Assembly: GCA_947571775.1 (NCBI GenBank)
Contig: CANOZK010000008.1
Location: 56,857-120,856, forward strand
DNA: 64,000 nucleotides
Reading direction: 5' to 3'
DNA from: an uncultured Lachnospiraceae bacterium
GTDB lineage: Bacteria; Bacillota; Clostridia; Lachnospirales; Lachnospiraceae
Shown: positions 31,741 through 51,296 of the stretch, piece by piece
Position numbering within the stretch: position 1 is the stretch's first letter
Layout of the letters: the number at the start of each line of letters is the position of its first letter
Program-made: the position numbers and the translations under genes
Notes under the pieces: model-generated
Databases searched by the model: none
What the model was told of the DNA's origin: nothing
Seen by the model: only the letters and a program-made list of their open reading frames with translations

Positions 31741-31977
31741 CTATATTTTTGCGCATTTTTCGGAATTTGCTGATTTATTGTACACATATTTTTCCCTTAT
31801 ATACCTCAATTTTTTTGCAAAATATTTCTCCATTTCATTAAGTTGTTGTGTATTTAAATCATCATAATATCCAATACATTTATGTGTAGAAGTTGATTGT
31901 ATATATTTAAACATAGTGTTTATAATATTATACACTGCAATCTCACACAAAATCACCCCCCCCCTTATTTTTTTCAT
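31741..31977 (-). CDS. small open frame that becomes a tail of the VOC protein by frameshift
   Basis: 78 codons (MKKIRGGVILCEIAVYN, later DDLNTQQLNEMEKYFAKKLRYI) overlapping the end of the VOC gene in another frame. Its ATG lies just before the G9 run, with no ribosome site. If one G is lost, the VOC frame continues into this frame and adds about 76 residues. No family recognised. It may only be expressed as a fusion. Confidence 0.35.
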   Translation of the reverse strand: MKKIRGGVILCEIAVYNIINTMFKYIQSTSTHKCIGYYDDLNTQQLNEMEKYFAKKLRYIREKYVYNKSANSEKCAKI

Positions 31978-32356
31978 AGAGTTCTATCATCCCAATCACC
32001 GGACTCATCAAAAAAACAACTCTTCCATTCCCTAATGCTGGTGCTATACAAGGTTCATCAATTTGAACACATCCTTGTTGAGATAAATATTTTAAATCTT
32101 TCTCAAATTCATTCGAACTGTAACACAAATGATATGGCATATTACGATATTGTGTTATAAGCCCTGATACAACCGAATCCTTTCCAACTGGTGAAACCAA
32201 TTCAATCACATAGCCATCTTTTTCTACAAAAACGATATGAATTTTTCTATGCTCATCATATATTTTTTTCTGTTTCAGTTGAAATCCAAGGGTTTCAAAC
32301 GCCTCTACTGCTCTATCTAATTTTTTCACAAGATACCCTATATGATGTATTTTCAC
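31943..32356 (-). CDS. VOC (glyoxalase/epimerase-like) protein with 3' poly-G tract
   Basis: 137 residues. Vicinal-oxygen-chelate fold: KIHHIGYLVKKLDRAVEAFETLGF, FVEKDGYVIELVSP, LCYSSNEFEKDLKYL, VVFLMSPVIGMIELYEK, resembling methylmalonyl-CoA epimerase with metal ligands His4 and Glu at the strand ends. Start is GTG overlapping the ACP stop (GTGA). After the last strand comes a G9 run and the tail GGGDFV. The position right behind an FkbH-ACP pair suggests action on an acyl-ACP or its sugar product. Function is inferred from the fold only. Confidence 0.8.
   Translation of the reverse strand: MKIHHIGYLVKKLDRAVEAFETLGFQLKQKKIYDEHRKIHIVFVEKDGYVIELVSPVGKDSVVSGLITQYRNMPYHLCYSSNEFEKDLKYLSQQGCVQIDEPCIAPALGNGRVVFLMSPVIGMIELYEKNKGGGDFV
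31956..31964 (-). repeat. poly-G(9) tract at the 3' end of the VOC gene
   Basis: Nine C on the plus strand, nine G on the coding strand, frame AAG GGG GGG GGT GAT. With ten G the protein ends after GGG; with eight G it reads on into the 78-codon frame ending at 31741. Confidence 0.9.
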
Positions 32357-32595
32357 TTCTTCTCCTTTTCAATAATATTCAGAATTTTTTTCACACTTTT
32401 TATCTCCAACATTTCCTGCATGGAAAATTTTATATTAAATGCTTGTTCAATCTCGCCGATTAAAGTAAGATGATTTAATGAATTCCAATCTTCAATATCA
32501 TCTGAATTAGTTTCTTCTGTGATCTCCATATCCTCAACCTCAAACACTTCCTCAAAAATAGATACAAGTTCTTTTAACATCTCTTTTCTTTCCAT
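32353..32595 (-). CDS. acyl carrier protein
   Basis: 80 residues. The phosphopantetheine serine lies in DWNSLNHL (about Ser39), in place of the fatty-acid ACP DSLD. Acidic and helical as expected. It lies 20 bases after the FkbH-like gene and overlaps the VOC gene start. In FkbH pathways a dedicated ACP carries a glyceryl group derived from 1,3-bisphosphoglycerate. Confidence 0.92.
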   Translation of the reverse strand: MERKEMLKELVSIFEEVFEVEDMEITEETNSDDIEDWNSLNHLTLIGEIEQAFNIKFSMQEMLEIKSVKKILNIIEKEKK

Positions 32596-32615
32596 TGCAT
32601 AATCCTCCTCTATAC

Positions 32616-34352
32616 CTATCTCTTCTTTTCTTCGATATATGTTTTCTGAAGTTTATAGTCTTTTACGGTCATCTCATACGTACGTTCTCCAACACATTTA
32701 AATCCAAAATCACTATATAAATTTTTGACCATTTCATTTCTCTGTGTTGGAATATATTCTCCAATAACTTTCTGGTAACCTTCTTCTTCCGCAATTTCCA
32801 TCACTTTATTGATAATGAATTCTTCCATTCCTCGTTTCAGCACTCTGCATGACATCAGCCATTCTTGAATAAACAACTCTTCTTTTGATTTTTTTTCCAG
32901 GATCATTACGCCAATCAAACCATGATCTCCAAATTTATCTTTAAGACAAAAATAAAGCGTTAGAAAATCATCGTTTCTTGCAATTTCCTCAATTTCTGAC
33001 TCTGTATAACGAATGGTCCGCAAATTAAATTGATTAGAACGCTGTGTCAACTGTGCAATCCTGGAATAATACATTTTCTCAAAAGGCTTTACCCAGGCAG
33101 TCATTTCCAATTCTTTCAGATAATCTTGAAAAGATCTCGCTGTATCTTTTAAAGATTCTCGTTTAGCTTCTGCTCTGTATTGCTGCGTCCTTCCTACGTC
33201 TTCATCAGAAAAGGACGCAGTTTCAAATAAATTCAAAGATTTTAGATATCCCACATACTGTGCTGGATCTTCTGGCAAATCCGGTACCGTTAATTCGGGA
33301 AAAGCTGTCCGTACCAAATTTCTTTCAAAAGGATTGTCATCCACAAAAACCATACTATCTATGCCTATATTTAGCTTGTCCCGAATATATTGCACATTGG
33401 TTGCCTTGTCCTGCCAATTTGCCACAAAAATTACAAAATCGTCTAAATGAAGCGTCATCTCTGGGTGAGAAATAAACGGCTCTTTAGCTATATATTCCTG
33501 ATTTTTAGAACAAACTGCCAGTAAAATACCTCGATTTTTCAATTCTTTTAGCCAACGCTGAAAATCTGTAAAAGCACGTCCTTGTCCTAACTCGCCGATC
33601 TGAATGTTTTCTATGCCATCATCCCCGATAACACCGCCCCATAAGGTATTATCCAAATCCAAAATAACACATTTATGGAGCCGTCCATGAAGCGTTTCCA
33701 CCACATCCAAAACGCCTTTTGCAACTTCTGGCAGAGCTTCTAGTGTAAACGGCATCTTCGCTATATTGTACATCCGCTGATCGTAAAATCTGCTTTGACC
33801 TACTTTTTGTTGTATCATATCCAAATCAATCCAAAACAAATTTCTAAATGCTAGCGCCTGCTCGATCAACATATGATTTAACTTTATCAGCTGGTACGAA
33901 AAAGAAGATTCCGTTTTTAACGCATAATTTCCAAACACATTATCATTGTCGTAAGTAAACGTAAACTGCAAAATATGAACTTTAGTCACTTGATTGATAC
34001 TGTTCCAATAATTTACAATTTTCTCACCCATAATTTCTGCAAACGAAGTCCTCTGAGAGCTTGGCATGGCACAAAAATCTTCATATAATTTTTGAATACA
34101 CATATATATAAGAATAGATTGTGGTTGAAACAAATATAATTGTGACTGGTCATCCATCACCTGGATATCAATCTGATTATAGTCCGCTTCAAAGATTTCC
34201 AGTCCATATCCTTCCTCATATGCATAACCTTTAATGGCCGTAGTCAAATGCTGTGTGGCACAATCCCCCAAAACAGCCAACTTATAACGAACTCGCCCTT
34301 CCAGAGTTTTTTTGCTGTTCTTCTTTAACTGTGTAAATGTAAGCTTATTCAT
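32616..34352 (-). CDS. FkbH-like HAD-IIIC protein (glyceryl-ACP synthesis)
   Basis: 578 residues: an N-terminal SGNH-like part (LAVLGDCATQHL), a HAD domain with DLDNTLWGGVIGDDG (about 230-244) and VDDNPFERNLV (about 338-348), and a C-terminal GNAT-like domain (about 430-560). FkbH proteins dephosphorylate 1,3-bisphosphoglycerate and load the glyceryl group on an ACP; a cognate ACP follows immediately. The start overlaps the pseG stop by eight bases, linking it to the Pse pathway. Likely supplies glyceric acid to decorate a sugar. Confidence 0.88.
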   Translation of the reverse strand: MNKLTFTQLKKNSKKTLEGRVRYKLAVLGDCATQHLTTAIKGYAYEEGYGLEIFEADYNQIDIQVMDDQSQLYLFQPQSILIYMCIQKLYEDFCAMPSSQRTSFAEIMGEKIVNYWNSINQVTKVHILQFTFTYDNDNVFGNYALKTESSFSYQLIKLNHMLIEQALAFRNLFWIDLDMIQQKVGQSRFYDQRMYNIAKMPFTLEALPEVAKGVLDVVETLHGRLHKCVILDLDNTLWGGVIGDDGIENIQIGELGQGRAFTDFQRWLKELKNRGILLAVCSKNQEYIAKEPFISHPEMTLHLDDFVIFVANWQDKATNVQYIRDKLNIGIDSMVFVDDNPFERNLVRTAFPELTVPDLPEDPAQYVGYLKSLNLFETASFSDEDVGRTQQYRAEAKRESLKDTARSFQDYLKELEMTAWVKPFEKMYYSRIAQLTQRSNQFNLRTIRYTESEIEEIARNDDFLTLYFCLKDKFGDHGLIGVMILEKKSKEELFIQEWLMSCRVLKRGMEEFIINKVMEIAEEEGYQKVIGEYIPTQRNEMVKNLYSDFGFKCVGERTYEMTVKDYKLQKTYIEEKKR

Positions 34353-35412
34353 CTTGAAATACCCTTTGTTCTATCTTTTCGACTATTCTTCTGCAACCGT
34401 TTCCATCCACCAATGACTTTGCCCTTTCTGCAATTTCATCTCTTATGTCCACATGCGTCATTAAATATTTTATCTCATCTATTAATTGTTGCTGATTTAA
34501 TTCACGATAATACCCCACATATTTTAAAATCCCACACCGTTCCAATGCTTTTATATGGAGAAGTTGATTGTCTGCATATGCGAACACAACCGCCGGAATA
34601 CCACAAGCCGCAAGCTCATATAAAGTAGAACCGCCTGCCGTTACTGCGATATCGCATTTTGCCATAATACCAGATATATTTTCGGGTTTGTCATATAAAA
34701 AAATATTTTTACAATCGATTATGTTAGAATCTGACCAAATATCTTTTTCAAATCCCCCACCCACAACAACGTGGTACTGAAACTCAAAAAACCCCTTTTG
34801 CCCCATCAAAATATTTAAAATCTTTTCTGTCATGTGATATGGATCTGCACTTCCCGTTGTAATCAATATATCCTTTATAGGGATGCTTTTCTGTATTAGT
34901 CTTGGATTGCAAAACTCTTTCCTAACTTGATTATATTTTAGCCCCAATAAAAGTTGTGCAGACTGCCCTTTTTCATATCCCATATCAAAAGCAGAAGCTG
35001 TGCCATTGACTAAAATATCCACCGGATAAGAAAATAAATTAAGATCATCAATATAAACCAAACACTTCGTCAATGGCCTTAACTCTAAAAAGAATTCGGC
35101 CGATACATTATAAGTGTCAACAATAAGCGCATCTGCCTTTTCTTGAATTTTGTTGCGGATCTCCACAATATCTTCCTTCAATTCCTTTGGGTCTCCATAA
35201 AAAAAACCTTTTGAATCCGCAAAACAATGCTCATGCGAAATCTTATATACTGCAATATCAGCTTTCTGAACCATTTGGATCCCTTGCTCATATTTACTGA
35301 AAAATATTACGTCATGCCCTTGCTTTTGAAAAGCTGCCGCCAATGATAAAGAACGCACAATGTGTCCCAAACCAGTTTTTGCATTGCCATGTACAATAAA
35401 ATAAACCTCCAT
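34345..35412 (-). CDS. pseG: UDP-sugar hydrolase of pseudaminic acid synthesis
   Basis: Removes UDP from UDP-2,4-diacetamido-2,4,6-trideoxy-beta-L-altropyranose. 355 residues with a GT-B-like fold: GNAKTGLGHIVRSLSLA holds the conserved GxGHxxR (His about 17), DALIVDTYNVS and YIDDLN, and the second-domain ELAACGIPAVVFAYADNQ. Slightly longer than Campylobacter PseG. Overlaps the FkbH gene by eight bases. Confidence 0.85.
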   Translation of the reverse strand: MEVYFIVHGNAKTGLGHIVRSLSLAAAFQKQGHDVIFFSKYEQGIQMVQKADIAVYKISHEHCFADSKGFFYGDPKELKEDIVEIRNKIQEKADALIVDTYNVSAEFFLELRPLTKCLVYIDDLNLFSYPVDILVNGTASAFDMGYEKGQSAQLLLGLKYNQVRKEFCNPRLIQKSIPIKDILITTGSADPYHMTEKILNILMGQKGFFEFQYHVVVGGGFEKDIWSDSNIIDCKNIFLYDKPENISGIMAKCDIAVTAGGSTLYELAACGIPAVVFAYADNQLLHIKALERCGILKYVGYYRELNQQQLIDEIKYLMTHVDIRDEIAERAKSLVDGNGCRRIVEKIEQRVFQDE

Positions 35413-35439: not shown

Positions 35440-36312
35440 TTATTTCGTTATAATCACACTCCCACATCGATCCAATATGGGAACGTAGGAAATACTATTT
35501 TTTGAACAATATTCCCGCACCGCACTTCTCACTCCATACCCCCAAGCATAAGTTCCAAAATCATGAATAAAAATATACCCGCCTGTCACAAGACGTGGAT
35601 AGAAATAAGAAAGACCTGCTAATGTTGGCTTATACAAATCCGCATCCAGACTGACCAGACAATATGTTTCATTCTCCAGCCCTTTCGCAGTATCCGGAAA
35701 ATACCCTTTTCTTATAATGCAAGATTCCGGATTTTGCATCTTGCCAAGCACATCCAAAACAGAAGCATCTGTAAACTTATGATTACTATCTAACCAAATA
35801 TCCCGTTCATCATCATCATTCTCGTTAAAACCTGAAAATGTATCAAAGAGATATAACTTGCGTTTTGGAAAATACCTATTAAAGTATTTTGAAAACTCCC
35901 CTTTGTAAACTCCTAATTCCGCCAGATTTCCATTTATTTTGTTTTCTTTGATTTCTTCTATACACCGCCGCAACATAGCTATTCTGGGTTCCTCCCATTG
36001 GATCTCTTTTGAATTAGGCTTATACAAAATAATCTGACTATCTTTTATACCCCCCCCCTCTAAAATTTTCTTCGTCAAATTTTTCAACTGGTTTTTCATA
36101 TCTTCCACATAATCGGCAATGGATAAAATAATATAGTCAAAATCATACTTCCAAATATTTTCTGGAGAATCCACATAATACCCGTGAAAAGTTTTTCCTT
36201 GCACTTCTTTATTGTTATCAATGAAACAAAGCGTTTGAAATTTCATATCATCTAAGGAATACAAAGCATCCAGTCCGCATCCAGACGCCCCAAAGATTAT
36301 AACCTTTTTCAT
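35440..36312 (-). CDS. TylF-type methyltransferase with N-terminal Rossmann domain and internal poly-G
   Basis: 290 residues from ATG 36312 (AGGA upstream; the ATG at 36324 lies too close to it). Residues 1-82 form a small sugar-nucleotide-like Rossmann domain (KKVIIFGASGCGLDAL, CFIDNNKEVQGK). From about 105 a TylF/macrocin O-methyltransferase domain: NLAELGVYKGEFSKYF, LYLFDTFSGFNEND, LVSLDADLYKPTLAGL, GGYIFIHDF, with the acidic metal ligands typical of the family. The G9 run lies exactly between the domains (residues 86-88). Likely O-methylates a sugar or the glyceryl group. Either frame slip removes the catalytic domain. Confidence 0.85.
   Translation of the reverse strand: MKKVIIFGASGCGLDALYSLDDMKFQTLCFIDNNKEVQGKTFHGYYVDSPENIWKYDFDYIILSIADYVEDMKNQLKNLTKKILEGGGIKDSQIILYKPNSKEIQWEEPRIAMLRRCIEEIKENKINGNLAELGVYKGEFSKYFNRYFPKRKLYLFDTFSGFNENDDDERDIWLDSNHKFTDASVLDVLGKMQNPESCIIRKGYFPDTAKGLENETYCLVSLDADLYKPTLAGLSYFYPRLVTGGYIFIHDFGTYAWGYGVRSAVREYCSKNSISYVPILDRCGSVIITK
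36050..36058 (-). repeat. poly-G(9) tract inside the TylF-type methyltransferase gene
   Basis: Frame GAG GGG GGG GGT ATA. With eight G the next codons are GTA TAA (stop). With ten G they are TAT AAA AGA TAG (stop). Nine is the in-frame state. Confidence 0.92.
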
Positions 36313-36361
36313 TTGTTTTCCCATCCTTTTTACTGTTTAAATCTACACAAAAATACCCTTA

Positions 36362-36910
36362 CTATGGTGAAAATGAAATTGAATCATACGAAAAATCTTT
36401 CCTTTTCTTTCTCCATTCTTCTCCATTTATACTCATGATCACTAAATCATAAGAAGCCTCTTTTTTCAAAATCGCGTTTTTTTGGATTTCATTGATATGA
36501 TTTCCGCAGTATTCATGTAATTTTATAACTCCTGTATTAAAACTCAGACATTCACAAAAAATTTCCTGAAAGCTCATTTCTTCAAATACATAATCATACA
36601 AACTACATTCAATAGAAATTGCAGCGGCAAAAGAACGTAAACTTTTTTCGCCTACATAATATCCCCACTCACAAGTTTTCGCATCATAATCTATATCTGT
36701 TAAACAGACTACGCCAGCCGGAATATCATTTATTTCAATAACCCAATATTTTTTACTGGCATCTTCCTGGATTCGTTCATACCACTTTCTTTGCGTAGCA
36801 ATTGTAGCCTCAAAATCTGTTTTCATATATTTGGTAATATCCGGGTCTGTTCTCCATTTCAAAATCAACTCTAAATCTTCTTGTAACATATTTCTCACAG
36901 ATATTCCCAT
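36362..36910 (-). CDS. pseH: UDP-4-amino-sugar N-acetyltransferase (PseH type)
   Basis: GNAT enzyme acetylating N4 of UDP-4-amino-4,6-dideoxy-N-acetyl-beta-L-altrosamine. 182 residues: ELILKWRTDPDITKYMKT at the N-terminus is the PseH signature; GVVCLTDIDYDAKTCEWGYYVGE and FNTGVIKLHEYCG follow the GNAT core. The acetyl-CoA loop is degenerate, as is usual in PseH. GGAGAG precedes the ATG. Acceptance of another acyl donor, such as glyceryl-ACP, cannot be excluded. Confidence 0.85.
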   Translation of the reverse strand: MGISVRNMLQEDLELILKWRTDPDITKYMKTDFEATIATQRKWYERIQEDASKKYWVIEINDIPAGVVCLTDIDYDAKTCEWGYYVGEKSLRSFAAAISIECSLYDYVFEEMSFQEIFCECLSFNTGVIKLHEYCGNHINEIQKNAILKKEASYDLVIMSINGEEWRKKRKDFSYDSISFSP

Positions 36911-36924
36911 GCAATCTCTCCTCT

Positions 36925-37830
36925 TTATTGTAAAATAAAATATCCAGTCATGCTTCTTCCTAATCCGGCCTCTCCCAATTTTCTATAAATATCCACTAAT
37001 CCTTCAATTCCCATAACATCACGCATCAATTCTTCAATCTCTAAGCCTGCTTCATAACAACTCTTTCCCACGTTTTTCTTTTGAACATAATTTGTATTTT
37101 CATTAAATAAATGAAAATCAATGGGATAACTTCCCATTAAAACCTCCATTTTCCAGCCATATTCTGTCATCAAATTATTTAATCCATCTTTATTAAAATA
37201 GGATAGATGTTCCGGAGGATATGCAGCAGTAACCCAAAATGGAGTTTCTATGTATCCCTCTTCATATAATTTTTTCTGGGTAGCAGAAAAATCATTTGGC
37301 ACCGATATTACTAGACTTGTTCCAGGTACTGATATCTCCGTAATTATTTTTATCAACCTTTCAGGATCTACAACATGTTCCAATACGTGATCCATCAAAA
37401 TAGTTCCTTTATAACACCTCTTTTCCATTTGGCTCAACACTTCAAGGGCATCTCCCAATACCACTTTATCCGCCACATCTGAATTATGCTGTTGACATCC
37501 TTCCAAACTAAATTCTATCCCTGATACCTCATATCCTGCTTCCATAAAAAATTTTAATGCAAATCCTTCTCCACATCCAACATCTAAGAATTTTTTTCTT
37601 TCCTCAGAAACCGGCAACAAATTTTCCAAAACATACCGTTTTTCTTTCAATCTATAATTTTTTTCCTCCAATTCCCTTTCGGAATATTGTTTTCGGTAAA
37701 GAGACATTTCCTTTTGATAATAAGAATCCTGATATAAGGAATCAATATCCGCTTTCACATAATTACCTTTTAATTCATAATATCCATATCTATTTTTTTC
37801 CACATCTTTATACAAATCCTTTTGCGACAT
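36925..37830 (-). CDS. class I SAM-dependent methyltransferase
   Basis: 301 residues. SAM-binding FLDVGCGEGFALKFFMEAGY (about 83-102), DHVLEHVVDPERLI and SVPNDFSATQ typical of sugar or lipid-linked substrate methyltransferases (Methyltransf_11/23 type). It lies between pseI and pseH, so it probably methylates a nonulosonic acid or its glyceryl substituent; Campylobacter carries di-O-methylglyceryl pseudaminic acid, a parallel from established knowledge. Substrate unproven. Confidence 0.8.
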   Translation of the reverse strand: MSQKDLYKDVEKNRYGYYELKGNYVKADIDSLYQDSYYQKEMSLYRKQYSERELEEKNYRLKEKRYVLENLLPVSEERKKFLDVGCGEGFALKFFMEAGYEVSGIEFSLEGCQQHNSDVADKVVLGDALEVLSQMEKRCYKGTILMDHVLEHVVDPERLIKIITEISVPGTSLVISVPNDFSATQKKLYEEGYIETPFWVTAAYPPEHLSYFNKDGLNNLMTEYGWKMEVLMGSYPIDFHLFNENTNYVQKKNVGKSCYEAGLEIEELMRDVMGIEGLVDIYRKLGEAGLGRSMTGYFILQ

Positions 37831-37852: not shown

Positions 37853-38920
37853 TTAATCTACTAACTCCCATGTTAACGGAGTGCCTCTTTTGATATCTAT
37901 TTTGGCTCTTTTTCCCAAGATTTCTTCATAATACATGGTATGCATGCCAAAGCCAGGACGTATAGATCTAACATTTTTTTCCGTAAATACCTCCCCCTGC
38001 TTTATATCCAAAACCACAAACAGAGAGCGGGAATGTTCACGGCTCTTAATTTGTTTAGGCGTTAAATGATATGTCACTCTTCCCATAGCTTTTTCCACAA
38101 TCCGAATCTCTTCTACCATTTTTTGAAACTCGTCCGGTTCCATGGAAAACACCCCGTCTGGACCGCCGTCTTCTCTGGAAAGCGTAAGATGTTTTTCAAC
38201 TACTTTTACTCCCATAGCCACAGCAGCCACGGCAACTGCACTGCCTAACGTGTGATCTGACAAACCAACCAGACAATCAAAAGTTTCTTTCATATTAACA
38301 ATCGTTTTCAGATTAATATCCTCATAAGGTGTTGGATATGAGGATGAGCATTTTAGTAAGATTACCTGTTCATTTCCCTCTTCTTTACAAGTGGCAATCG
38401 CTCTCTCTATATCTTCCATCCATGCAATTCCAGTTGAAATAATCACGGGTTTTCCCAACCTGGCAATCTTTTTTATCAAAGGAATATCTGTAATTTCAAA
38501 AGAAGCCACTTTGTATGCTGGAACATCTATTTTTTCCAAAAAATCCACAGAAGTTAAGTCAAACGGTGACGAAAAACATATAAGCCCTAATTCTTCAGCT
38601 ACCTTTTTTAGCTTTGGCTGCCATTCCCATGGGGTATAAGCTTCCTGATATAATTTATACAGTGTTGTTCCGTCCCATATAGTCCCTTGATTAATTCTGA
38701 AATATGAATTATCACAATCAATCGTAATAGATTCTGGTGTATACGTTTGAAGTTTAACCGCATCAGCTCCAGATTCTTTCGCTTTCCTTATTATTTTTAC
38801 AGCGCGATCATAATTTTGTAGATGATTAGCAGATATTTCTGCTATGATAAATACAGGATATTCTCCACCAATCTTTCTACCATTCATTTCTATTGTCTTT
38901 CTCATTACACTTTCATCCAT
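37853..38920 (-). CDS. pseI: pseudaminic acid synthase
   Basis: Condenses 2,4-diacetamido-2,4,6-trideoxy-L-altrose with PEP to give pseudaminic acid. 355 residues: NeuB-type TIM barrel (FIIAEISANHLQNYDRAVKI, ADAVKLQTYTPESITID, GTIWDGTTLYKLYQEAYTPWEW, which is the PseI rather than NeuB form) and a C-terminal SAF antifreeze-like domain (SREHSRSLFVVLDIKQGE to LGKRAKIDIKRGTPL). A second start at 38905 is possible; neither has a strong ribosome site. Confidence 0.92.
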   Translation of the reverse strand: MDESVMRKTIEMNGRKIGGEYPVFIIAEISANHLQNYDRAVKIIRKAKESGADAVKLQTYTPESITIDCDNSYFRINQGTIWDGTTLYKLYQEAYTPWEWQPKLKKVAEELGLICFSSPFDLTSVDFLEKIDVPAYKVASFEITDIPLIKKIARLGKPVIISTGIAWMEDIERAIATCKEEGNEQVILLKCSSSYPTPYEDINLKTIVNMKETFDCLVGLSDHTLGSAVAVAAVAMGVKVVEKHLTLSREDGGPDGVFSMEPDEFQKMVEEIRIVEKAMGRVTYHLTPKQIKSREHSRSLFVVLDIKQGEVFTEKNVRSIRPGFGMHTMYYEEILGKRAKIDIKRGTPLTWELVD

Positions 38921-39142: not shown

Positions 39143-39832
39143 TTATTTACTTTCTCCAATCCGGTATTTCATTTCTGCTATTTCCCAATCCTCCAAATTA
39201 TCAATATCTTGTACTTCTAACCCGTCCATTATCATGGGAATCACATTTTTTCCCATGAGTACTCCCGATTCCAAAAAAGAAGAAATATTAAATACATAGA
39301 ATTGACCACTATCATGATAAATAGGTTCTAAATCCTGCGATCGTATATTCAAATTCTCTGGAAATTGCATTTTCGCCATTCCATCACGAATAATAATCGC
39401 ACGTTGTGGAGGAAAAGAATATGCTACAACCGGAATGACCGTATCCGCTTTCTTCTTTTCTATTATAGATAAAGCACGCTTCAATTTACTTGCCGTTATA
39501 AAGGGGGCTGTTGGGTAAATACAACATCCATAATCAAAATTTTTACCCATTTGATTATATCTCATTAGCACTTCTTTTAATACGTCGGATGTAACCGCAT
39601 AATCATCAGAATTCTCTGGAGAGCGAAAAAACGGCACCTTTGCCCCTGCTTTTCTAGAAATATCCGCTATCTCCTCATCATCCGTTGATACCATTATTTC
39701 ATCAAATACAGCACTATTTATTGCCGCTTCTATTGAATAAAGAATAATTGGTTTTCCACAAAATTTTTTTATATTTTTTCTTGGAATTCGTTTACTTCCA
39801 CCTCTTGCAGTTATAATAGCAATTGTTTTCAT
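39143..39832 (-). CDS. pseF: CMP-pseudaminic acid cytidylyltransferase
   Basis: Activates pseudaminic acid with CTP. 229 residues from ATG 39832 (a GTG three codons earlier sits on the ribosome site). CTP-binding IITARGGSKRIPRKNIK, IMVSTDDEEIADISRKAGAKVPF and CIYPTAPF are intact, as is the metal-binding YHDSGQFYVF end. The stretch 38921-39142 before pseI is AT-rich with no gene. Confidence 0.92.
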   Translation of the reverse strand: MKTIAIITARGGSKRIPRKNIKKFCGKPIILYSIEAAINSAVFDEIMVSTDDEEIADISRKAGAKVPFFRSPENSDDYAVTSDVLKEVLMRYNQMGKNFDYGCCIYPTAPFITASKLKRALSIIEKKKADTVIPVVAYSFPPQRAIIIRDGMAKMQFPENLNIRSQDLEPIYHDSGQFYVFNISSFLESGVLMGKNVIPMIMDGLEVQDIDNLEDWEIAEMKYRIGESK

Positions 39833-40310
39833 TTTTTTCACACCCTTTTAGCATTATTCTTAAATAACTGAATGGTTAAATGTTTTCAATTCAGAATTAC
39901 CTATATCTGCCCATACTCTACAAGGACAAACTACAAGGTCTGGTACTACAAACCCTACCTTACATAGATATGTCCTGACGTAAATCGTTATGAAGCATTT
40001 GCACTATATGAAAAACGAACCTATCTCTGATCCGACTGATGATGGCACTGTATTTCCAAACAATATACCAACTGCTCTCAATAGATATACGTGAATAAAA
40101 CATGACTGCTTTCCACCTGCTGGGATTTATGGTATTCTTATAGGCAATACATCTCGGCTTATGCATTGGTTTCTGGATTTATCAATCTAGTTACAATATA
40201 TATCTACATATATTCACTTAAGATGGCATCTTTTTTATTTGAGATTTTCTAACTGTCCAATTAAATATAGTTCCTAATATTTTTTCCTTTTCAAAGCCAA
40301 AAGCAAATTA
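39833..40310. other. 478-base gap with no recognisable gene
   Basis: AT-rich spacer between the GT2 gene and pseF. Short frames on both strands show no family I know, although a hydrophobic reading on the plus strand with several stops (QTIYQLLSIDI, LLGFMVFL) could be an old membrane-protein or transposase remnant. I cannot support a call. Confidence 0.4.
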
Positions 40311-41396: not shown

Positions 41397-41565
41397 ATAT
41401 CATAGTACCCTCTCCATAACGCAACCATCGATTTTAACAAACTATAATTCTAAATTGGATAGGACAGTAACACAGCGTTTGTCACCTCAATTTGCTAAAA
41501 TACCAAAAACTATTATATTTCGTATCAAGTAAGGCATTTTTGACTTACCACAAAGTCTCCTTAAT

Positions 41566-42462
41566 CTATTTAACCATTTTTAAAATACTTTCTTCAAAAT
41601 CAGATTTACACTCAAACCCAGTATCTCTATATAAAGCTTCCAAATCAATCATGGAATAATCAATATTTTGCACATCTTATATTCACCAAATATTAATTCA
41701 ATATCAGGATTGATTACATCTCTAACTTCCATCATCCACTGCCTAAAAGTCTTTAATTTTCTATGTTCTATATAATACCCTCTGCAATTTGCGCCTTTAT
41801 CTCCAATCACAATAAATGCATCCACTATGTTTTAATATAAATAATATCATACATATTCTTTCTTTCCACAAGTTTAGGCGCCACACCCTTATTTAAACAA
41901 TCTATCACCACATTCATTAACTGTTTTGAATAATTATTTCCTCCATAAGACATAGGAATAAAAGCAACATTATAATCAATGCCTAGGTCATATGCCAATA
42001 TACGGCATATGAGGTCGGCTGCTGTTTTTCCTGTGGAATATATGCAAGTATATCTTGGTTCAAAACTTTCTGTTGCCAAAAAATTTCTAATTTCGTATTC
42101 ATTAATAGGTGCCTGCATGTACAAATTTATTACATTCTATTTCTTTAGCTGCAACAAGAGTATCCCCAGTATACGCTGCATTCTGCATCTGTAATGAATA
42201 ATCTCGAATAGACGATGTAAATCCTCCTGTTCATGCAAAATGGTAAAATACGTCTATTTCTCTAATCCTTAATTAGTTGAGGCAATTTACCATATATTGA
42301 AAAATCTGCAATCACTGGAATAAAATTTTGATATTCAATAAATTTATTGAATTTTGATATATCTATATCCGCACCATAAACTATCATCTCTTTATGAAAC
42401 AATTCCTTTACCAGTGATTCATCTATAAACCCACCCGCGCCAGTAACAATAACTTTCCTCAT
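41566..42462 (-). pseudogene. decayed NAD-dependent sugar epimerase/dehydratase gene
   Basis: N-terminal frame 42462-42262 has the nucleotide loop VIVTGAGGFIDESLVKELF; a later frame 42124-41825 has STGKTAADLICRILAYDLGI with the SxnxxK-type active region; the last part reads VDAFIVIGDKGANCRGYYIEH, shifts, and ends IDLEALYRDTGFECKSDFEE and a stop at 41566. At least two shifts and a stop separate the parts. Overlaps the stop of the 2,3-dehydratase remnant (ATGA), so both were one operon. Confidence 0.8.
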
Positions 42463-42660
42463 TCATAATTTTGTTCATCTGAAAAGTATTCTAAGTAAGC
42501 AGGCGCTTTTCCTCCATGTGTCTGCATAAAATTACTTTTTGTCGCCTGAATCGTTGGTGAAATCTGAATTCTATTGACATTACCTGGTTCAATTTTGGCC
42601 TGCATCAAAAAAATACATATCCCATCAGTCACCTTACTACAATAATTTCTCTGCCCATTT
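42459..42660 (-). pseudogene. C-terminal remnant of an NDP-hexose 2,3-dehydratase gene
   Basis: The minus strand reads continuously to a TGA at 42459: LMQAKIEPGNVNRIQISPT, then QATKSNFMQTHGGKAPAYLE and YFSDEQNYE. This is the hallmark end of NDP-hexose 2,3-dehydratases, which make 3-deoxy- and 2-deoxysugars. The rest of the gene is gone: upstream of about 42660 I find glycosyltransferase remnants instead. Confidence 0.75.
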
Positions 42661-42769
42661 TTAAGCTTTCCTTAAATATATGTTTTCTGTATATGTTCCG
42701 ATGTTTTGTCATCCAGAACATACAACTTAAAAATATATAATAAAACGCCGCCTTCTATATTCTTTTCTA

Positions 42770-43525
42770 TAATTTTCTGAACAACTCAATATGGAAAGTT
42801 TTTCATAATAATAGGCCGCCGCTTTTATTCTATCCTCAACCTTTTTAGGCGTAAAAGAAGCTGTTTGACTATTCTGATCACCAATACGAAAATACAATAA
42901 TTCCTCTGTTGACCCATAAGATTCTATGTAATTTACAACCCAATAATTATATAGAACACCACATATTCAAACATTTTCCGGAAATAAAACTTGATTATCA
43001 ATCAATATGTCTCTTCGATATAAATTGCCAAATACATATCCAAAATTTCTGCAAAGAGACGTTTTTCATTCTTCGTTCATATCTGTTCTATAATCAATAT
43101 TTGGTCTAAAATATTTTCTGCCATCATTTCCTAAAATTCCTTTTCTAAAATCCCACATGAGACACAATCAGTAGTCCCATTTTGCGTCAAATGATACATT
43201 TTTCCTAACATAGAAAAATCTGGATAATCGTCCTGATCTATAAAAAGAATATATTTACCAGACGCCTTGCTGACGCCAATATTCCTTGCACGTCCGGCTC
43301 TTCCATTATTATTACACTTAATTAATTTAAAAATACTTTTTCTCTCAAAATTGTTTTTTTATTCTCGACTAACTGAACGCTCTCATCCGTAGATATATCA
43401 TCTACAATGATGATCTCATATACACCGACAAAAGTTTGCTCAGCTAATCTTTCCAAACATGTCATAACTTTTTCCCCTCCATTATAGAGAGGAATAATTA
43501 CACTAATTAGTATTCTTTTATTCAT
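42770..43525 (-). pseudogene. decayed GT2 glycosyltransferase gene
   Basis: Starts with an intact first 67 codons (ISVIIPLYNGGEKVMTCLERL, IIIVDDISTDESVQLVE) and a stop at 43322. In another frame the chain goes on: GRAGRARNIGVSKASGKYIL and FIDQDDYPDFSMLGKMYHLT, then further stops and shifts (VSCGIWDFRKGI, LYRRDILIDNQVLFPENV). All GT2 landmarks can be found but not in one frame. Confidence 0.8.
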
Positions 43526-43605
43526 TATGAGTTCGCCAGGTTTTTATTATTAATACATATTTTTAGCAAAGTAGAGAAATAAAGCAATTTTTGAATTTAG
43601 CAATC

Positions 43606-44805
43606 CTAGATTTTTTTATAATTCGCGGTTACTTTATTCACTGCATGGACAACATCCTCTACATCCTGATCTGTCATTTTCGGATACAATGGAATACTCA
43701 TAATGCTCTTATATATTTCTTCTGCCTGAGGACATAATCCCTTTTTATATCCTAAATGTCTATAATATGGAAACCAATAAACAGGAATATAATGAACTTG
43801 ACACTGTACATTTTCCGCACTCATCGCATCGTAGAATTCCCTTCGCGTACAAACCAGCTTGTCCAAATCAAGACGAATAATATACAAATGACGACAAGTA
43901 TCTGACTCTGGAATTTCCTGTTGAACTATAATCTCTGGCAACGCTGCAAATGCCTCATCATATGTTTTTACAATCTCTTTTCGCCGCTTTGCAAATTTCT
44001 GCAGTTTTTTCATCTGACTTACAATTAACGCTGCCTGAAAATCTGTGATACGATAATTATATCCCAAAGTAATCTCTTCATAACACCATGATCCCTCGTG
44101 AAAATCATCTTCCATCATATTTTTATCACGGGTAATGCCATGAGTACGAGCCAATGCTAATTTCGTATATAATTCCTGACTATTTGTAAGCACTGCCCCA
44201 CCTTCACCGCCAGTAATCGTTTTTACCGGATGGAAACTAAAACATGTCATATCTGCAAGCGATCCAACTTGTTTCCCATCATATTTTGTGCCAATTGCGT
44301 GAGCGGCATCCTCAATAAATATCAATCCATATTCATCGCAAATTTCACGTATCTCCCTGTTCTGCACCGACTGCCCTGTAAAATCCACTGCTATAACCGC
44401 TTTCGTTTTCTTAGTAATATGCGCACGAATACTGTTCGGATCAATGTTATAAGTTTTTGGGTTAATATCAGCAAACACAGGACGCGCCCCACAATACAAA
44501 ACACAATTTGCACTGGCTGCAAAAGTAATAGATGTTGTAATCACTTCATCACCGGCCCCTATGCCGGCCGCTATGCAAGCACAATGCAGTGCAGCCGTTC
44601 CGTTCGATACGGCAACTGCATATTCAGCCCCAGTATACATTTTCAGAGTGTATTCCATCTCCTCTATCTTTGGTCCACATGTAAGATAATCACTGCGCAA
44701 TGTATCACATACCGCCTCAATATCGTCCTCTTCTATCCATTGATGACCATAGAATATTTTTTCGCGTCGAACTGACGTCCCTCCATCAATTGCCAATTTC
44801 TCCAT
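43606..44805 (-). CDS. pseC: UDP-4-keto-sugar aminotransferase (PseC)
   Basis: PLP enzyme that aminates the 4-keto sugar made by PseB. 399 residues from ATG 44805 (GGGAG upstream; a TTG at 44829 is the only earlier start). DegT/DnrJ/EryC1 fold: VSNGTAALHCACIAAGIGAGDEV, VDFTGQSV, FIEDAAHAIGTKYDG, and the PLP lysine in SFHPVKTITGGEGG (about residue 192). Lies 20 bases downstream of pseB. Confidence 0.93.
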   Translation of the reverse strand: MEKLAIDGGTSVRREKIFYGHQWIEEDDIEAVCDTLRSDYLTCGPKIEEMEYTLKMYTGAEYAVAVSNGTAALHCACIAAGIGAGDEVITTSITFAASANCVLYCGARPVFADINPKTYNIDPNSIRAHITKKTKAVIAVDFTGQSVQNREIREICDEYGLIFIEDAAHAIGTKYDGKQVGSLADMTCFSFHPVKTITGGEGGAVLTNSQELYTKLALARTHGITRDKNMMEDDFHEGSWCYEEITLGYNYRITDFQAALIVSQMKKLQKFAKRRKEIVKTYDEAFAALPEIIVQQEIPESDTCRHLYIIRLDLDKLVCTRREFYDAMSAENVQCQVHYIPVYWFPYYRHLGYKKGLCPQAEEIYKSIMSIPLYPKMTDQDVEDVVHAVNKVTANYKKI

Positions 44806-44825
44806 TCCCACATCTCCCGTAATGT

Positions 44826-45821
44826 TCAATGCTTATCCAAATCCGTTTTCAAAAGTCTCTGAATATCCTCAACACTTAACCAATCCACATTTGTCCCTGA
44901 ACTATACTCAAATTCCGGAGCAACCAGTTTTCCTCCAGGTATGATGTTTTTCTGCGCCCACCAATTATAATTAGGAAACACGATAAAATGTTTTTCATAT
45001 TCGAATGTATGCATGGAATCTTCCCTAGTCACCATAATCTCATGCAGTTTCTCTCCTTCTCTTATCCCCACTTCCGGCATTTCACAGCCGGGAAGCATTG
45101 CCTGCGCCAAATCTGTAATCTTAAAAGAAGGAATCTTAGAAATAAAAGTCTCCCCGCCTCTAGCCTCTTTCAATGCCTTTATGACAAGCTCTACACCCTG
45201 TTTTAAACTAATCCAGAACCGTGTCATACGAAAATCTGTAATTGGCAGCTCTTTTCCCCCATGATCGATAATATTTTTAAAAAATGGAATAACCGATCCA
45301 CGACTCCCTGCAACATTCCCATAACGGACCACCGCAAAACGTGTGCCATCAATTCCTGAATAAGAGTTTGCCGCTATAAATAGTTTATCCGAAACTAGCT
45401 TAGTGCCCCCATACAGATTAATTGGATTTACCGCTTTATCTGTAGACAAAGCAACAACTTTTTTCACGCCTGCATCTAACGATGCTGTAATTACATTCAT
45501 TGCGCCATTTACATTTGTTTTAATTGCCTCATTTGGATTATATTCACAGGCTGGCACCTGTTTTAATGCAGCAGCATGAATAACATAATCTACACCCTTC
45601 ATAGCCATTCTAAGTCTCGCTTCATCCCTGACATCACCAATAAAATACCGCAGTGTATCACGATATTCACTATATTCATTGCTCATAACAAATTGCTTAT
45701 ATTCGTCTCTGGAATATATAATTACTTTTTGAGGTTTGTAATGATGAAACACATAGTCTACAAATTGATGTCCAAATGACCCTGTGCCTCCTGTCAGCAA
45801 AATAGTTTTATCATTTAACAT
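44826..45821 (-). CDS. pseB: UDP-N-acetylglucosamine 4,6-dehydratase (inverting), PseB
   Basis: First enzyme of pseudaminic acid synthesis: dehydrates UDP-GlcNAc and inverts C5. 331 residues: NADP loop ILLTGGTGSFGHQFVDYV, VIIYSRDEYKQFVMSNEY, HAAALKQVPACEYNP, and the STDKAVNPINLYGGTK active segment (Tyr and Lys of the SDR motif). Preceded at a distance by the ABC flippase. The gene block pseB-pseC is separated from the other four pse genes by the decayed block and a GT2. Confidence 0.94.
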   Translation of the reverse strand: MLNDKTILLTGGTGSFGHQFVDYVFHHYKPQKVIIYSRDEYKQFVMSNEYSEYRDTLRYFIGDVRDEARLRMAMKGVDYVIHAAALKQVPACEYNPNEAIKTNVNGAMNVITASLDAGVKKVVALSTDKAVNPINLYGGTKLVSDKLFIAANSYSGIDGTRFAVVRYGNVAGSRGSVIPFFKNIIDHGGKELPITDFRMTRFWISLKQGVELVIKALKEARGGETFISKIPSFKITDLAQAMLPGCEMPEVGIREGEKLHEIMVTREDSMHTFEYEKHFIVFPNYNWWAQKNIIPGGKLVAPEFEYSSGTNVDWLSVEDIQRLLKTDLDKH

Positions 45822-48707: not shown

Positions 48708-48934
48708 AATTTACAACCCTTTCATCCATAATAACAGCTTTTTATCAATATTATTTTTTTAACACCTAAAATGCTCTACTGCACAAAGTGCATAATAAAA
48801 ACACAAAAAGTTTCTATTTTGAAATTTTCTCTGAAAAAATGAAATTTATAATGGATAAAAGAATTTTTTTCTAAATCTAACACTGACAATATTTTACCTT
48901 GCCACAAGACTCTAGTTTCCAGCCAAATGTAATC

Positions 48935-49600
48935 CTACTTAAAATCCGTAAAAAATTGTTCAGCATCATCAAATAACTCAGCATTTTCTGCAATCCATTC
49001 CTCACCTTTATCCCACCATTTTAGTCTTATTAATTTCTCAATCACTTCTTCAGAAAATCTATATTTAATTGTTTTTGCTGGTACGCCACCTACTATAGCA
49101 TACGGAGGAATATCTTTTGTCACAACAGCGCCCGTCCCAATAATTGCTCCATCGCCAATTTTTATACCCTCCAATATACGAACTCCTTCACCGATCCACA
49201 CATCATTCCCTATGCGAATAGAAATTTGTTTTTCTTTATCCAGTCTTTTATTAACTTCAAATTTATCATTTCTAACATAAGTAAATCCATTCTGTTGTGT
49301 AGTCGAGTAAAATGCTGGATGAATAGACATGAAATTAGATGAAGGATGTATTCCAATAACCGTCCTAACATAGCCCGCAATACAAACATAACGTCCTATT
49401 TCTACATCTTTTAAAAAACAATTTATACTCGTTCCGCTTGCATATCCAAAATGAGCATTAACCACTTCCGTACCTGCACTTAAGTAATTTCTCCCTTCAA
49501 ATGTACTTTTCATATCGGCGGTCGCATTATGAGAAAAACTGCATACCCCCCCCCACCGAAATTTTAATATTACCTTTTTTAAAAGCTTTTTTAATAACAT
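48935..49600 (-). CDS. left-handed beta-helix acetyltransferase with internal poly-G
   Basis: 222 residues from ATG 49600 (after the GT2 stop at 49621; a longer reading overlaps that gene). N-terminal basic helix MLLKKLLKKVILKFRW, then hexapeptide repeats (CFLKDVEIGRYVCIAG, IRIGNDVWIGEGVRIL, IKIGDGAIIGTGAVVT, AIVGGVPAK) of the xenobiotic/CatB-type O-acetyltransferases with a C-terminal helix pair. The G9 run falls at residues 15-17, before the catalytic core, so a slip removes the whole enzyme. Likely O-acetylates the glycan. Confidence 0.9.
   Translation of the reverse strand: MLLKKLLKKVILKFRWGGVCSFSHNATADMKSTFEGRNYLSAGTEVVNAHFGYASGTSINCFLKDVEIGRYVCIAGYVRTVIGIHPSSNFMSIHPAFYSTTQQNGFTYVRNDKFEVNKRLDKEKQISIRIGNDVWIGEGVRILEGIKIGDGAIIGTGAVVTKDIPPYAIVGGVPAKTIKYRFSEEVIEKLIRLKWWDKGEEWIAENAELFDDAEQFFTDFK
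49546..49554 (-). repeat. poly-G(9) tract inside the acetyltransferase gene
   Basis: Frame CGG TGG GGG GGG GTA TGC. With eight G the frame ends ten codons later at ATA TGA; with ten G it ends after six at TCA TAA. Nine is the in-frame state. Confidence 0.92.
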
Positions 49601-49620
49601 ATTGACACCCCAAGACTTCT

Positions 49621-50445
49621 CTATTTTCCAAATAACAATTTGATATATGGCGTCCAACACCTCAAGATAGCTATTACAATTCCATAATTTTTATGTAAAT
49701 AATGAAACCATTGATTAAAAGGAGCCCCCTTAGGACTTTCCTTATCTTTCAACCGTTGTAAAATGGTTTTGCGCTTATCTAAATACGATTCCAAATTATC
49801 GTCACATTCTCCTACATAATCCATAGATGTATAAATTTTATAACCTGACCGAACGATCATCATTCCATAGTCAAATTCTCCCCAATTATGCGTATAAGCC
49901 GCATCCATAGGACCTATTTCAACAAATATATTCTTGGGTATCAATACACAGTTCCCATTAAATGTATCTGCTTCCACTTCTTGATCATTCAAATCCAATT
50001 TCTTATATTTTAGACTTTTTTTTGTTTTAAATTTTATTGCTCCATAGTTCAATTCTCCAATCTCATTATGAATAGCTCCCACTATAACAGCATTGTTTTT
50101 TTTCAGACTCTTTTCAACCATCCCATCAAGAAAGCCTTCAAAAAACTCAACATCATCATTGACCATTAACAAATAATCAAACTTCCAATGTAACGCTATA
50201 ATATACTCCATTCCTTTCCGCATACCACCAGTATAATATAGCTCCCCGTTCCCCTTTACAATATGTAATATATATTTTTTTGAATAAAAAGAAAGCATCT
50301 CCTCAGTCCCATCGCTACTGCCATCATCTACAACAACAAATTCCAAGGCATATTGATGGTTATTTTCCTTTGCCAATGATTCAATGCATCTCTTCGTTTT
50401 TTCACACCGGTTAAAGCAAGTCATTAAAACAACTATAGTTTTCAT
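49621..50445 (-). CDS. GT2 family glycosyltransferase (rhamnosyltransferase-like)
   Basis: 274 residues: VVLMTCFNRCEKTKRCIESL, VVVDDGSSDGTEEML, LLMVNDDVEFFEGFLDGM (DxD-type DDV) and FNGNCVLIPKNIFVEIG, the pattern of dTDP-rhamnose:glycan transferases and relatives. No membrane helix. Donor not known. Just upstream of the acetyltransferase. Confidence 0.88.
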   Translation of the reverse strand: MKTIVVLMTCFNRCEKTKRCIESLAKENNHQYALEFVVVDDGSSDGTEEMLSFYSKKYILHIVKGNGELYYTGGMRKGMEYIIALHWKFDYLLMVNDDVEFFEGFLDGMVEKSLKKNNAVIVGAIHNEIGELNYGAIKFKTKKSLKYKKLDLNDQEVEADTFNGNCVLIPKNIFVEIGPMDAAYTHNWGEFDYGMMIVRSGYKIYTSMDYVGECDDNLESYLDKRKTILQRLKDKESPKGAPFNQWFHYLHKNYGIVIAILRCWTPYIKLLFGK

Positions 50446-50492
50446 AATTTCCCCACTTTATAATTCAAATTTGTCAAAAAAAGAATTTCACC

Positions 50493-51296
50493 TTATTCTT
50501 TCCACTCCGCCTCAAAATAATGTATAATCCTTTCCTCCTCAGGAGGTAATTTCATATAATCTCCATATATTCTATTTAACCATTTACCCCCCCCCTTAGG
50601 AATTTTGAAAAAGTGTCCTTCAAATTCTCCTTCGTCGACAGCTTCAAACACTTCTTTTGATATACATTCACTGGGCAAATAACCCCATACTATATTAGTC
50701 ACAAATTCACTTTGATCATAGGGATATTTCTCACAAAGCTTATCCAATTTTTCACAAATCCATTTACTGCTAATCAATCGAGAAAAAGGGTACATAACAT
50801 TTTTTACAAATTTTTTTAACTTGGTAGAACCTTCACCAAATCTATAATTTGCGAAAGCATATAATTTATAGTATATTGCCGCTTTTTTCTCTAATCTTTT
50901 CCTTTTTTTCTCGTTATCTGGCATTCCATCCAGAGGGAATACATCAATATAAACCCCTAATGTATCTGTAATAAGATATTTTTCAGAAAGCTTGGTTCGA
51001 GTATCAATTACTTTGGCAAAAGGAAATGTATGAACATCATGGTAATCTAAAACGCGAAAATATTCTCCAATATTTTCTTCTTTTACTAATTTCATAAACT
51101 GATCGTAATCCGGTCTAGGCATAACAACATCAACATCATTATCCCATGGTATAAAACCTTTATGGCGTATAGAGCCTATCAAAGTTCCATACGCCAAAAA
51201 ATATCTTAAATTATATTTCTCACAATATTTTGCAAACTTAATTAATATTTCTAATTCTAGTTTTCCAACCTCTATGTCACTTATTTTCCTCCCCAT
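50493..51296 (-). CDS. LicD-family phosphotransferase with internal poly-G
   Basis: 267 residues. LicD core: FAKYCEKYNLRYFLAYGTLIGSIRHKGFIPWDNDVDVVMPR (about 21-61), which holds the nucleotidyltransferase-like acidic residues, and the C-terminal IYGDYMKLPPEE. LicD enzymes attach phosphocholine or another phospho-alcohol to surface glycans. The G9 run encodes Gly235-237, in the loop where relatives have a varied sequence just before WLxRIYGDYM. A slip deletes this conserved end. No choline kinase or LicA-C set is in the window, so the head group is unknown. Confidence 0.88.
   Translation of the reverse strand: MGRKISDIEVGKLELEILIKFAKYCEKYNLRYFLAYGTLIGSIRHKGFIPWDNDVDVVMPRPDYDQFMKLVKEENIGEYFRVLDYHDVHTFPFAKVIDTRTKLSEKYLITDTLGVYIDVFPLDGMPDNEKKRKRLEKKAAIYYKLYAFANYRFGEGSTKLKKFVKNVMYPFSRLISSKWICEKLDKLCEKYPYDQSEFVTNIVWGYLPSECISKEVFEAVDEGEFEGHFFKIPKGGGKWLNRIYGDYMKLPPEEERIIHYFEAEWKE
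50587..50595 (-). repeat. poly-G(9) tract inside the LicD-family gene
   Basis: Frame AAG GGG GGG GGT AAA. With eight G: GTA AAT GGT TAA (stop). With ten G: GGG TAA (stop). Nine is the in-frame state. Confidence 0.92.

What the first reader, a model, noticed from the sequence alone, without database searches (positions are those of the whole stretch)
31943..51296. Four G9 runs in one glycan island: a multi-gene slipped-strand contingency system
Runs of exactly nine G lie on the coding strand of four genes: VOC protein (31956-31964), TylF-type methyltransferase (36050-36058), hexapeptide acetyltransferase (49546-49554) and LicD-type phosphotransferase (50587-50595). The host DNA there is AT-rich, where such runs are very unlikely by chance, and I found none longer than six in the core flanks. 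All lie in modifiers, not backbone enzymes, and all are in-frame at nine. This predicts independent ON/OFF switching, up to 16 surface types per clone. Poly-G contingency loci are well known in Campylobacter and other Proteobacteria; I know of no described case in gut Clostridia, although I could not search.
Basis: partly seen in the sequence, partly recalled or inferred. Interest (0 to 1): 0.93.

Follow-up and report, generated by a model that had tools for sequence, protein, structure and literature searches.

The report
Poly-G switches in Clostridia sugar island
Four genes of a surface-sugar gene cluster in a genome that is likely a Lachnospiraceae (gut-type Clostridia) each carry a run of exactly nine Gs, and sister species carry such runs at lengths of 8 to 13, often in genes of similar kinds, so three of the four genes would be switched on and off at random by slippage at the run, as in Campylobacter, which our literature searches did not find described for this group.

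Summary
In detail: four G9 runs, G on the coding strand, no other run over six in the window. Genome-wide, G/C runs of 6/7/8/9/10+ number 224/8/3/9/0: a clear excess at nine, four of the nine in 18.6 kb. Four sister-species genomes hold 42 runs of 9 to 13. Of 23 tract-side gene pieces with a Pfam match, 17 are glycan-type enzymes or repeat-type surface proteins; reading states are mixed. One capsule-type gene has a tract at the same site in two species, in frame in one, out of frame in the other. Protein records hold in-frame products and exact C-terminal suffixes (TylF, hexapeptide) and a LicD relative shifted one base at the tract. I read this as slipped-strand phase variation. Any change of one or two Gs truncates TylF, hexapeptide and LicD. 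VOC is different: its tract lies past the conserved domain, so "16 types" becomes eight. The island has all six pseudaminic acid genes plus FkbH, a carrier protein and two methyltransferases, much like the Campylobacter locus where a tract gene varies the same sugar. MutS and MutL are present. Switching in culture is untested. New member of a known kind; nine searches (capped lists) showed no report in this group.

The parts
36050..36058 (-). G9 tract in TylF-type methyltransferase gene (from codon 89 of 294)
   Evidence: encodes GGG in a length-variable loop; relatives at 70-72% identity lack the GGG; after helix 70-87 in the model
35440..36324 (-). Methyltransferase: N-terminal NeuD/PglD-like Rossmann part (weak match, below cut-off) + TylF domain (PF05711)
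49546..49554 (-). G9 tract in hexapeptide acyltransferase gene (from codon 36 of the 241-codon ORF; close homologues of 221 aa start at codon 21)
48935..49660 (-). Hexapeptide (PF00132) acyltransferase-like gene
50587..50595 (-). G9 tract in LicD gene (from codon 234 of 267)
   Evidence: at the junction of strand 228-233 and helix 236-248 of the model, upstream of near-invariant C-terminal columns
50493..51296 (-). LicD-family phosphotransferase (PF04991)
31956..31964 (-). G9 tract at the 3' end of the VOC gene; changes the tail, not the domain
31943..32356 (-). VOC/glyoxalase-fold protein (PF13669)
32353..32595 (-). Acyl carrier protein (PF00550)
32616..34352 (-). FkbH-type protein (TIGR01686, 307 bits, cut-off 147)
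34345..35412 (-). PseG (TIGR03590, over cut-off)
36362..36910 (-). PseH (TIGR03585, over cut-off)
36925..37830 (-). Second SAM methyltransferase (PF13489)
37853..38920 (-). PseI pseudaminic acid synthase (TIGR03586, over cut-off)
39143..39841 (-). PseF (TIGR03584, over cut-off)
43606..44829 (-). PseC (TIGR03588, over cut-off)
44826..45821 (-). PseB (TIGR03589, over cut-off)

Best explanation
Three of the four G9 runs (in the TylF-type methyltransferase, the hexapeptide acyltransferase and LicD) are likely slipped-strand contingency tracts: a gain or loss of one or two Gs during replication would cut the encoded protein to 92-95, 43-50 or 236-240 residues, so a clone would switch each gene on and off independently, reversibly and at random. 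Shown here: the runs, their excess over chance, the computed truncations, the same kind of run at other lengths and in both reading states in sister species, and one gene with a tract at the same site in two species in different states. Inferred: that the lengths change within a clone, the rate, and that the effect is varied decoration of a pseudaminic-acid-containing surface glycan (methyl, acyl and phosphocholine-type groups), which would help against phage and antibody. The fourth run, at the end of the VOC gene, is predicted to change only the tail of the protein, or to be idle.
For: Excess at exactly nine, none at ten or more, genome-wide. Sister species: 42 runs >=9 in G001-G004, lengths 9 to 13, most often 9. 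Of 30 gene pieces beside tracts given to Pfam (27 from sister species, 3 from the own genome) 23 matched: 14 glycan-type enzymes, 3 repeat-type surface proteins, 2 polytopic membrane families, 4 other. Of 55 tracts >=8 in five genomes, 30 met a coding criterion: 16 in frame, 14 out of frame. Same-site pair: NKWYS gene, G9 in frame in G002, G8 out of frame in the window's own genome, flanking protein parts 76% and 53% identical. Public proteins: P0126 (178 aa, 5 contigs up to 23,256 bases) is an exact suffix of P0121 (97% identical to the window's TylF), which carries the tract codons in frame; P0245 (192 aa, 2 contigs up to 17,607 bases) is an exact suffix of the 221-aa P0242 and P0243 (87% identical to the window's hexapeptide protein); P0004 (78% identical to LicD) departs at the tract, and its tail is compatible with the LicD C-terminus read one base out (14 of 16 residues; shuffled tails at most 0.62). 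Truncated LicD loses near-invariant residues Y244, G245, Y247, M248, L250-P252, R256, H259. A contig end lies within 120 bases of a tract in 6 of 42 cases against 0.44 expected from rounded contig counts.
Against: No DNA reads were available, so no length mixture in one culture was seen. The suffix proteins are known only as protein records; a gene caller choosing a late start would look the same, and the source of the P0126 cluster is hidden. P0242 and P0243 have Arg or Glu at the tract codon, so their own G run is interrupted. P0040, a LicD relative, is frameshifted away from the tract, so errors or decay occur in this material without poly-G. In the same-site pair the letters after the run differ too, so the frame difference is not the G count alone. 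Mismatch repair genes are present (own genome: MutS frame 881 aa, MutL frame 673 aa), which should lower slippage. The own genome's nine G9 tracts are all exactly nine, which fits a fixed length as well as a common modal length. Of the 25 tracts that failed the coding criterion, six (not counting two beside an N gap) lie in an open frame of over 200 codons on the C strand, so not every tract is poly-G in a gene. Some frame assignments are doubtful: VOC counts as out of frame only because two frames are long, L113 as in frame although one search shows a stop at the tract, L094 and L107 are unclear, and L005 is probably a chance G8.
Confidence: 0.8

Rival explanations
1. The runs are fixed: Gly-Gly-Gly loops that happen to use GGG codons and do not switch at any useful rate.
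For: All nine G9 runs of the genome are exactly nine; MutS and MutL are present.
Against: GGG is only 104 of 446 Gly codons outside the tracts in the island genes, and none of the 26 Gly-Gly pairs outside them is GGGGGG. Relatives of TylF at 70-72% identity lack the triple Gly. Sister genomes show 8 to 13 Gs and out-of-frame copies.
Confidence: 0.11
2. Programmed slippage in transcription or translation at the G9 run makes two products at once, without any change in DNA.
For: Long homopolymers can slip during transcription (recalled); the in-frame DNA would then express both forms.
Against: It does not explain differing tract lengths between species or out-of-frame genomic copies, or the shifted P0004.
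Confidence: 0.05
3. Sequencing or assembly artefact: the lengths are unreliable in short-read assemblies.
For: Homopolymers are error-prone (recalled), and contigs end at tracts (6 of 42).
Against: The runs recur in several assemblies, often in glycan-type and surface genes, and three window genes read through in frame at nine. An artefact would not choose such genes.
Confidence: 0.04

Closest known systems
Campylobacter poly-G phasome (PhasomeIt survey, PMC6321876; passages seen)
   Same: G runs inside reading frames; length peak at 9 (there 53% at 9 and 26% at 10; here, of 51 runs of nine or more in five genomes, 30 are 9 and 10 are 10); surface-glycan genes; mixed reading states.
   Different: Clostridia, not Campylobacter; fewer tracts per genome (9 here; 1 to 22 runs >=9 in four sister genomes); switching not yet shown; MutS1 and MutL present (their state in Campylobacter was not looked up). 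There only 5% of tracts in frames were poly-C; I made no matching strand count.
C. jejuni flagellin glycosylation locus and Cj1295 (PMC3068675; abstract and Discussion read)
   Same: A pseudaminic acid gene set with homopolymer-tract genes that alter the sugar; there Cj1295 is required for a di-O-methylglyceroyl form. This island has PseB, C, H, G, I, F plus FkbH, an acyl carrier protein and two methyltransferases, which would fit a methylated glyceroyl group (inferred).
   Different: The tract genes here are a TylF-type methyltransferase, a hexapeptide acyltransferase and LicD; I did not search for a Cj1295 homologue. No flagellar gene was recognised among the 27 window proteins searched; WecG/TagA, Wzy-like and LicD genes suggest a cell-wall or capsular glycan.
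Phosphocholine phase variation (lic1 of Haemophilus influenzae; poly-G pptA of Neisseria): recalled, not looked up
   Same: Switching of a phosphocholine-type decoration; LicD family here (PF04991) with a choline-binding-repeat protein in the same window.
   Different: lic1 switches by tetranucleotide repeats in licA (recalled); here it is a poly-G run in the LicD gene itself.
Invertible-promoter phase variation in Clostridioides difficile (review PMC11868660; 12 of 14 passages seen)
   Same: Phase variation in Clostridia.
   Different: DNA inversion, not homopolymer slippage; the passages seen name no homopolymer case in Clostridia.

Membership tests
Poly-G simple-sequence contingency locus (slipped-strand phase variation) | G run of 8 or more inside a reading frame, G on the coding strand | tested here: met
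   four of four window genes
Poly-G simple-sequence contingency locus (slipped-strand phase variation) | Runs more frequent than chance | tested here: met
   (one search's whole-window shuffle alone does not show it)
Poly-G simple-sequence contingency locus (slipped-strand phase variation) | A one-base length change truncates the product | tested here: met
   TylF, hexapeptide and LicD, three of four
Poly-G simple-sequence contingency locus (slipped-strand phase variation) | A one-base length change truncates the product (VOC gene) | tested here: not met
   domain ends before the tract at any length
Poly-G simple-sequence contingency locus (slipped-strand phase variation) | Tract at the same site differs in length or state between lineages | tested here: met
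   NKWYS gene outside the window, G9 in frame vs G8 out of frame, though letters after the run differ too; for the window's own genes only by protein records
Poly-G simple-sequence contingency locus (slipped-strand phase variation) | Length polymorphism within one species | tested here: inconclusive
   exact-suffix and shifted proteins; DNA not seen
Poly-G simple-sequence contingency locus (slipped-strand phase variation) | Frequent, reversible switching in culture | not testable with these tools
   needs reads or colonies
Pseudaminic acid biosynthesis locus | PseB, C, H, G, I, F all present | tested here: met
   six of six over NCBIfam cut-offs
Cj1295-type pseudaminic acid switch | Cj1295 homologue with a homopolymer tract | not tested
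   no search made
lic1-type phosphocholine switch | LicD-family enzyme with a length-variable repeat | tested here: inconclusive
   family met; relative P0004 shifted at the tract; variation in this species unseen

The most novel reading that the evidence does not exclude
Gut Clostridia run a Campylobacter-style poly-G phasome: dozens of glycan-modifying and surface genes scattered through genera of this family are switched by G runs, converging even on the same pseudaminic acid sugar, and a resident prophage of a sister species carries a G run in a tail-fibre-region gene, so host and phage may both shuffle their interface by slippage.
Probability: 0.4. Interest if true: 0.85.

Novelty: new member of a known kind. 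Interest (0 to 1): 0.66.

Why it matters
In the review passages seen, phase variation in Clostridia is DNA inversion. If poly-G slippage also drives the surface glycans of such commensals, strain differences in phage sensitivity, antibody coating and glycan signalling could be read from ordinary metagenomes by measuring G-run lengths, and genes now annotated as broken could be switched-off genes. The convergence with Campylobacter on tract type, tract length and sugar makes a direct comparison possible.

Tried and rejected
Four ON/OFF genes: rejected for VOC. Loss of mismatch repair as the cause: not supported; the MutS_I and MutL_C domains were found in the own genome and all four sister species, in frames of 881-917 aa (MutS) and 673-728 aa (MutL; 409 aa in the 61% complete G004). 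TylF and LicD copies in related species for a direct length comparison: 3 of 397 and 2 of 397 family genomes match at the strict cut-offs, the own genome included; the genes are accessory. Viral contigs for TylF relatives: none. Genome contigs with the hexapeptide protein: ten relatives, the best 54% identical, no near strain. A trait special to this genus: rejected; 253 of 397 family genomes have at least one G9 window and, by my hand count of the table, about 62 have nine or more; most of these were not examined. The folds served only to place the tracts. Taxonomy: the tools name no organism for the window; Lachnospiraceae is inferred from the name of LicD relative P0010 and the many genera in the family.
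Full report
Observation. Outside them the longest G or C run of the window is six. The island (26.0-52.5 kb) is 34% G+C, the whole window 41%.

Chance. Window counts over the whole genome (G6 285, G7 41, G8 21, G9 9) translate into 224 runs of exactly six, 8 of seven, 3 of eight, 9 of nine, none longer. From the eight sevens, at most 0.35 runs of nine or more are expected (P at most 1.4e-10); four of the nine in 18.6 kb has P about 4e-5. Markov simulations of the masked island agree. The dinucleotide shuffle of the entire window (12 G7 windows, 7.9 expected, 16 of 100 shuffles as high) does not; it includes the tracts and the GC-richer flanks. GGG is 104 of 446 Gly codons outside the tracts in 23 island genes and none of 26 Gly-Gly pairs is GGGGGG.

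What a length change does. With 7, 8, 10 or 11 Gs the TylF-type protein ends at 92-95 of 294 residues, the hexapeptide protein at 43-50 of 241, LicD at 236-240 of 267. TylF then lacks its catalytic domain (residues 114-279). LicD lacks most of a C-terminal helix and a strand (model) and residues near-invariant in 41 aligned sequences (Y244, G245, Y247, M248, L250-P252, R256, H259, A263, W265). VOC is different: its Pfam domain spans 4-113, relatives in 31 of 397 family genomes (own included) align to residues 127-135, and the tract begins at codon 131; the product is 133/134, 137 or 204/205 residues. I therefore do not count VOC as ON/OFF.

Where the tracts sit. In TylF the tract codes for GGG in a loop after helix 70-87 (mean pLDDT 72 for residues 81-90); relatives of 70-72% identity have a slightly shorter loop without the triple Gly. 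In LicD it lies at the junction of strand 228-233 and helix 236-248, where relatives have other residues such as GFD or GYD. So the tracts look young and placed in tolerant sites.

Sister species. Four same-genus genomes hold 42 runs of nine or more: 22 in G002, 13 in G003, 6 in G001, 1 in the incomplete G004, lengths 9 to 13; G002 also has a G8 in a TylF-type gene, out of frame. Of 30 gene pieces next to tracts that I gave to Pfam (27 from sister species, 3 from the own genome, chosen for length), 23 matched: 14 glycan-type enzymes (TylF and FkbM methyltransferases, acyltransferase families, MBOAT, hexapeptide, glycosyltransferases, NKWYS capsule type), 3 surface proteins with Ig-like or leucine-rich repeats, 2 polytopic membrane families (YfhO, DUF6056), 4 others; 7 had none. 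Among all 55 tracts of eight or more in the five genomes, 30 met a coding criterion: 16 in frame and 14 out of frame; 25 did not meet it, two of them beside an N gap. Six of the other 23 lie in a C-strand frame of over 200 codons, so poly-C or intergenic tracts exist too. Some single assignments are doubtful (VOC, L113, L005, L094, L107). Mixed states are what phase variation predicts; partial decay would also give them.

Same site, two states. The NKWYS-type gene has a tract at the same place in G002 (G9, in frame) and in the window's own genome (G8 followed by further G-rich letters, out of frame), with flanking protein parts 76% and 53% identical. The frame difference is not the G count alone. 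The own genome also has a G9 just behind a signal-peptide-like start of a Big_2 surface protein, out of frame, so it carries both states.

Alleles in public proteins. The 178-residue P0126 (5 contigs, longest 23,256 bases) is an exact suffix of P0121 (219 residues, contig of 854 bases), whose sequence includes the in-frame tract codons; the 192-residue P0245 is an exact suffix of the 221-residue P0242 and P0243, which differ from each other only at the tract codon (Arg or Glu); P0244 starts at the tract. LicD relative P0004 (78% identical) departs at the tract, and 14 of 16 positions of the LicD C-terminus are compatible with its tail read one base out, against a best fraction of 0.62 for 2,000 shuffled tails. 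The simplest reading is OFF alleles. Caveats: protein records only; late start choice possible; P0040 shows a frameshift elsewhere in the gene, so errors do occur.

Assembly breaks. Six of the 42 sister-species tracts lie within 120 bases of a contig end, 0.44 expected from the rounded contig counts. This fits length mixtures that stop assemblers, but also plain homopolymer trouble.

Mismatch repair. MutS_I and MutL_C domains were found in the own genome and all four sister species, in long open frames except a 409-aa MutL frame in the incomplete G004. As in Neisseria (recalled), this does not exclude switching but suggests modest rates.

What the island makes. PseB, C, H, G, I and F all exceed their NCBIfam cut-offs, and so does FkbH; an acyl carrier protein, two methyltransferases, a hexapeptide acyltransferase, LicD, glycosyltransferases, an ABC transporter and WecG/TagA and Wzy-like genes lie there or just beside it. 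A methylated glyceroyl pseudaminic acid is my inference from FkbH plus carrier protein plus methyltransferases; C. jejuni makes a di-O-methylglyceroyl form that needs the tract gene Cj1295 (PMC3068675, abstract and Discussion). A choline-binding-repeat protein lies in the same window as LicD.

Range. In 397 genomes of the family, 253 have at least one G9 window, about 62 nine or more by hand count. I looked into two further genera: all 14 tracts listed for G017 (13 stretches) and 11 of about 26 for G033 (7 stretches). By eye, and for the hexapeptide protein by BLAST, they include acyltransferases, a hexapeptide protein and starts of lipoproteins; many others are outside recognisable genes. The trait is thus patchy across the family.

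Known or not. Nine full-text searches on phase variation (three with capped lists) showed no report of homopolymer phase variation in Lachnospiraceae or gut Clostridia; a tenth on pseudaminic acid added none. The recurring hit PMC6437147 speaks of Campylobacter tracts and, separately, of Lachnospiraceae abundance (passages). A 2025 review names inverted promoters in C. difficile (PMC11868660, passages). The PhasomeIt survey gives the Campylobacter length peak at 9 (53%) and 10 (26%) (PMC6321876, passages). The library is open-access only.

Verdict. A poly-G contingency system in a Clostridia glycan island, three ON/OFF genes rather than four, strong by comparison of genomes and not yet seen switching.

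Noticed in passing
L087:2493-3641 (G002 C13): A gene between a tail-fibre gene and a holin in a prophage of a sister species carries an in-frame G12 run; a related neighbour gene at 1088-1993 has none. Phage counter-switching is possible.
   Followed up: partly
window 41400-43600, - strand: Remains of a family-2 glycosyltransferase and a sugar epimerase gene, broken by several stops and not by G runs, inside the same island (gene names by eye).
   Followed up: no
own genome C6:88661 and C6:88804 (L006): Two G9 runs 143 bases apart with no frame over 106 codons on either strand, perhaps in a promoter region.
   Followed up: no
own genome C3:113275 (L002): G9 directly behind a signal-peptide-like start of a Big_2 surface protein, out of frame; sister species have similar tracts behind such starts (L084 in frame, L106 out of frame).
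   Followed up: partly
L109, L110 (G003): Two paralogous loci, 72-76% identical, both with G9 at the same place and both out of frame; no Pfam (one L109 piece) or PHROGs (two L109 pieces) match.
   Followed up: no
P0242 and P0243: Two hexapeptide proteins identical but for Arg/Glu at the tract codon, as if the run had been interrupted twice and locked ON.
   Followed up: no
G063, G076, G085, G097 (other families); G188, G190, G237, G410, G411 (same family): Genomes with about 70 to 400 G9 windows each; not examined, base composition unknown.
   Followed up: no
L179, L182, L183 (G017): G9/G10 runs directly behind lipoprotein-like signal peptides, one out of frame and two in frame, in another genus of the family (by eye).
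   Followed up: no
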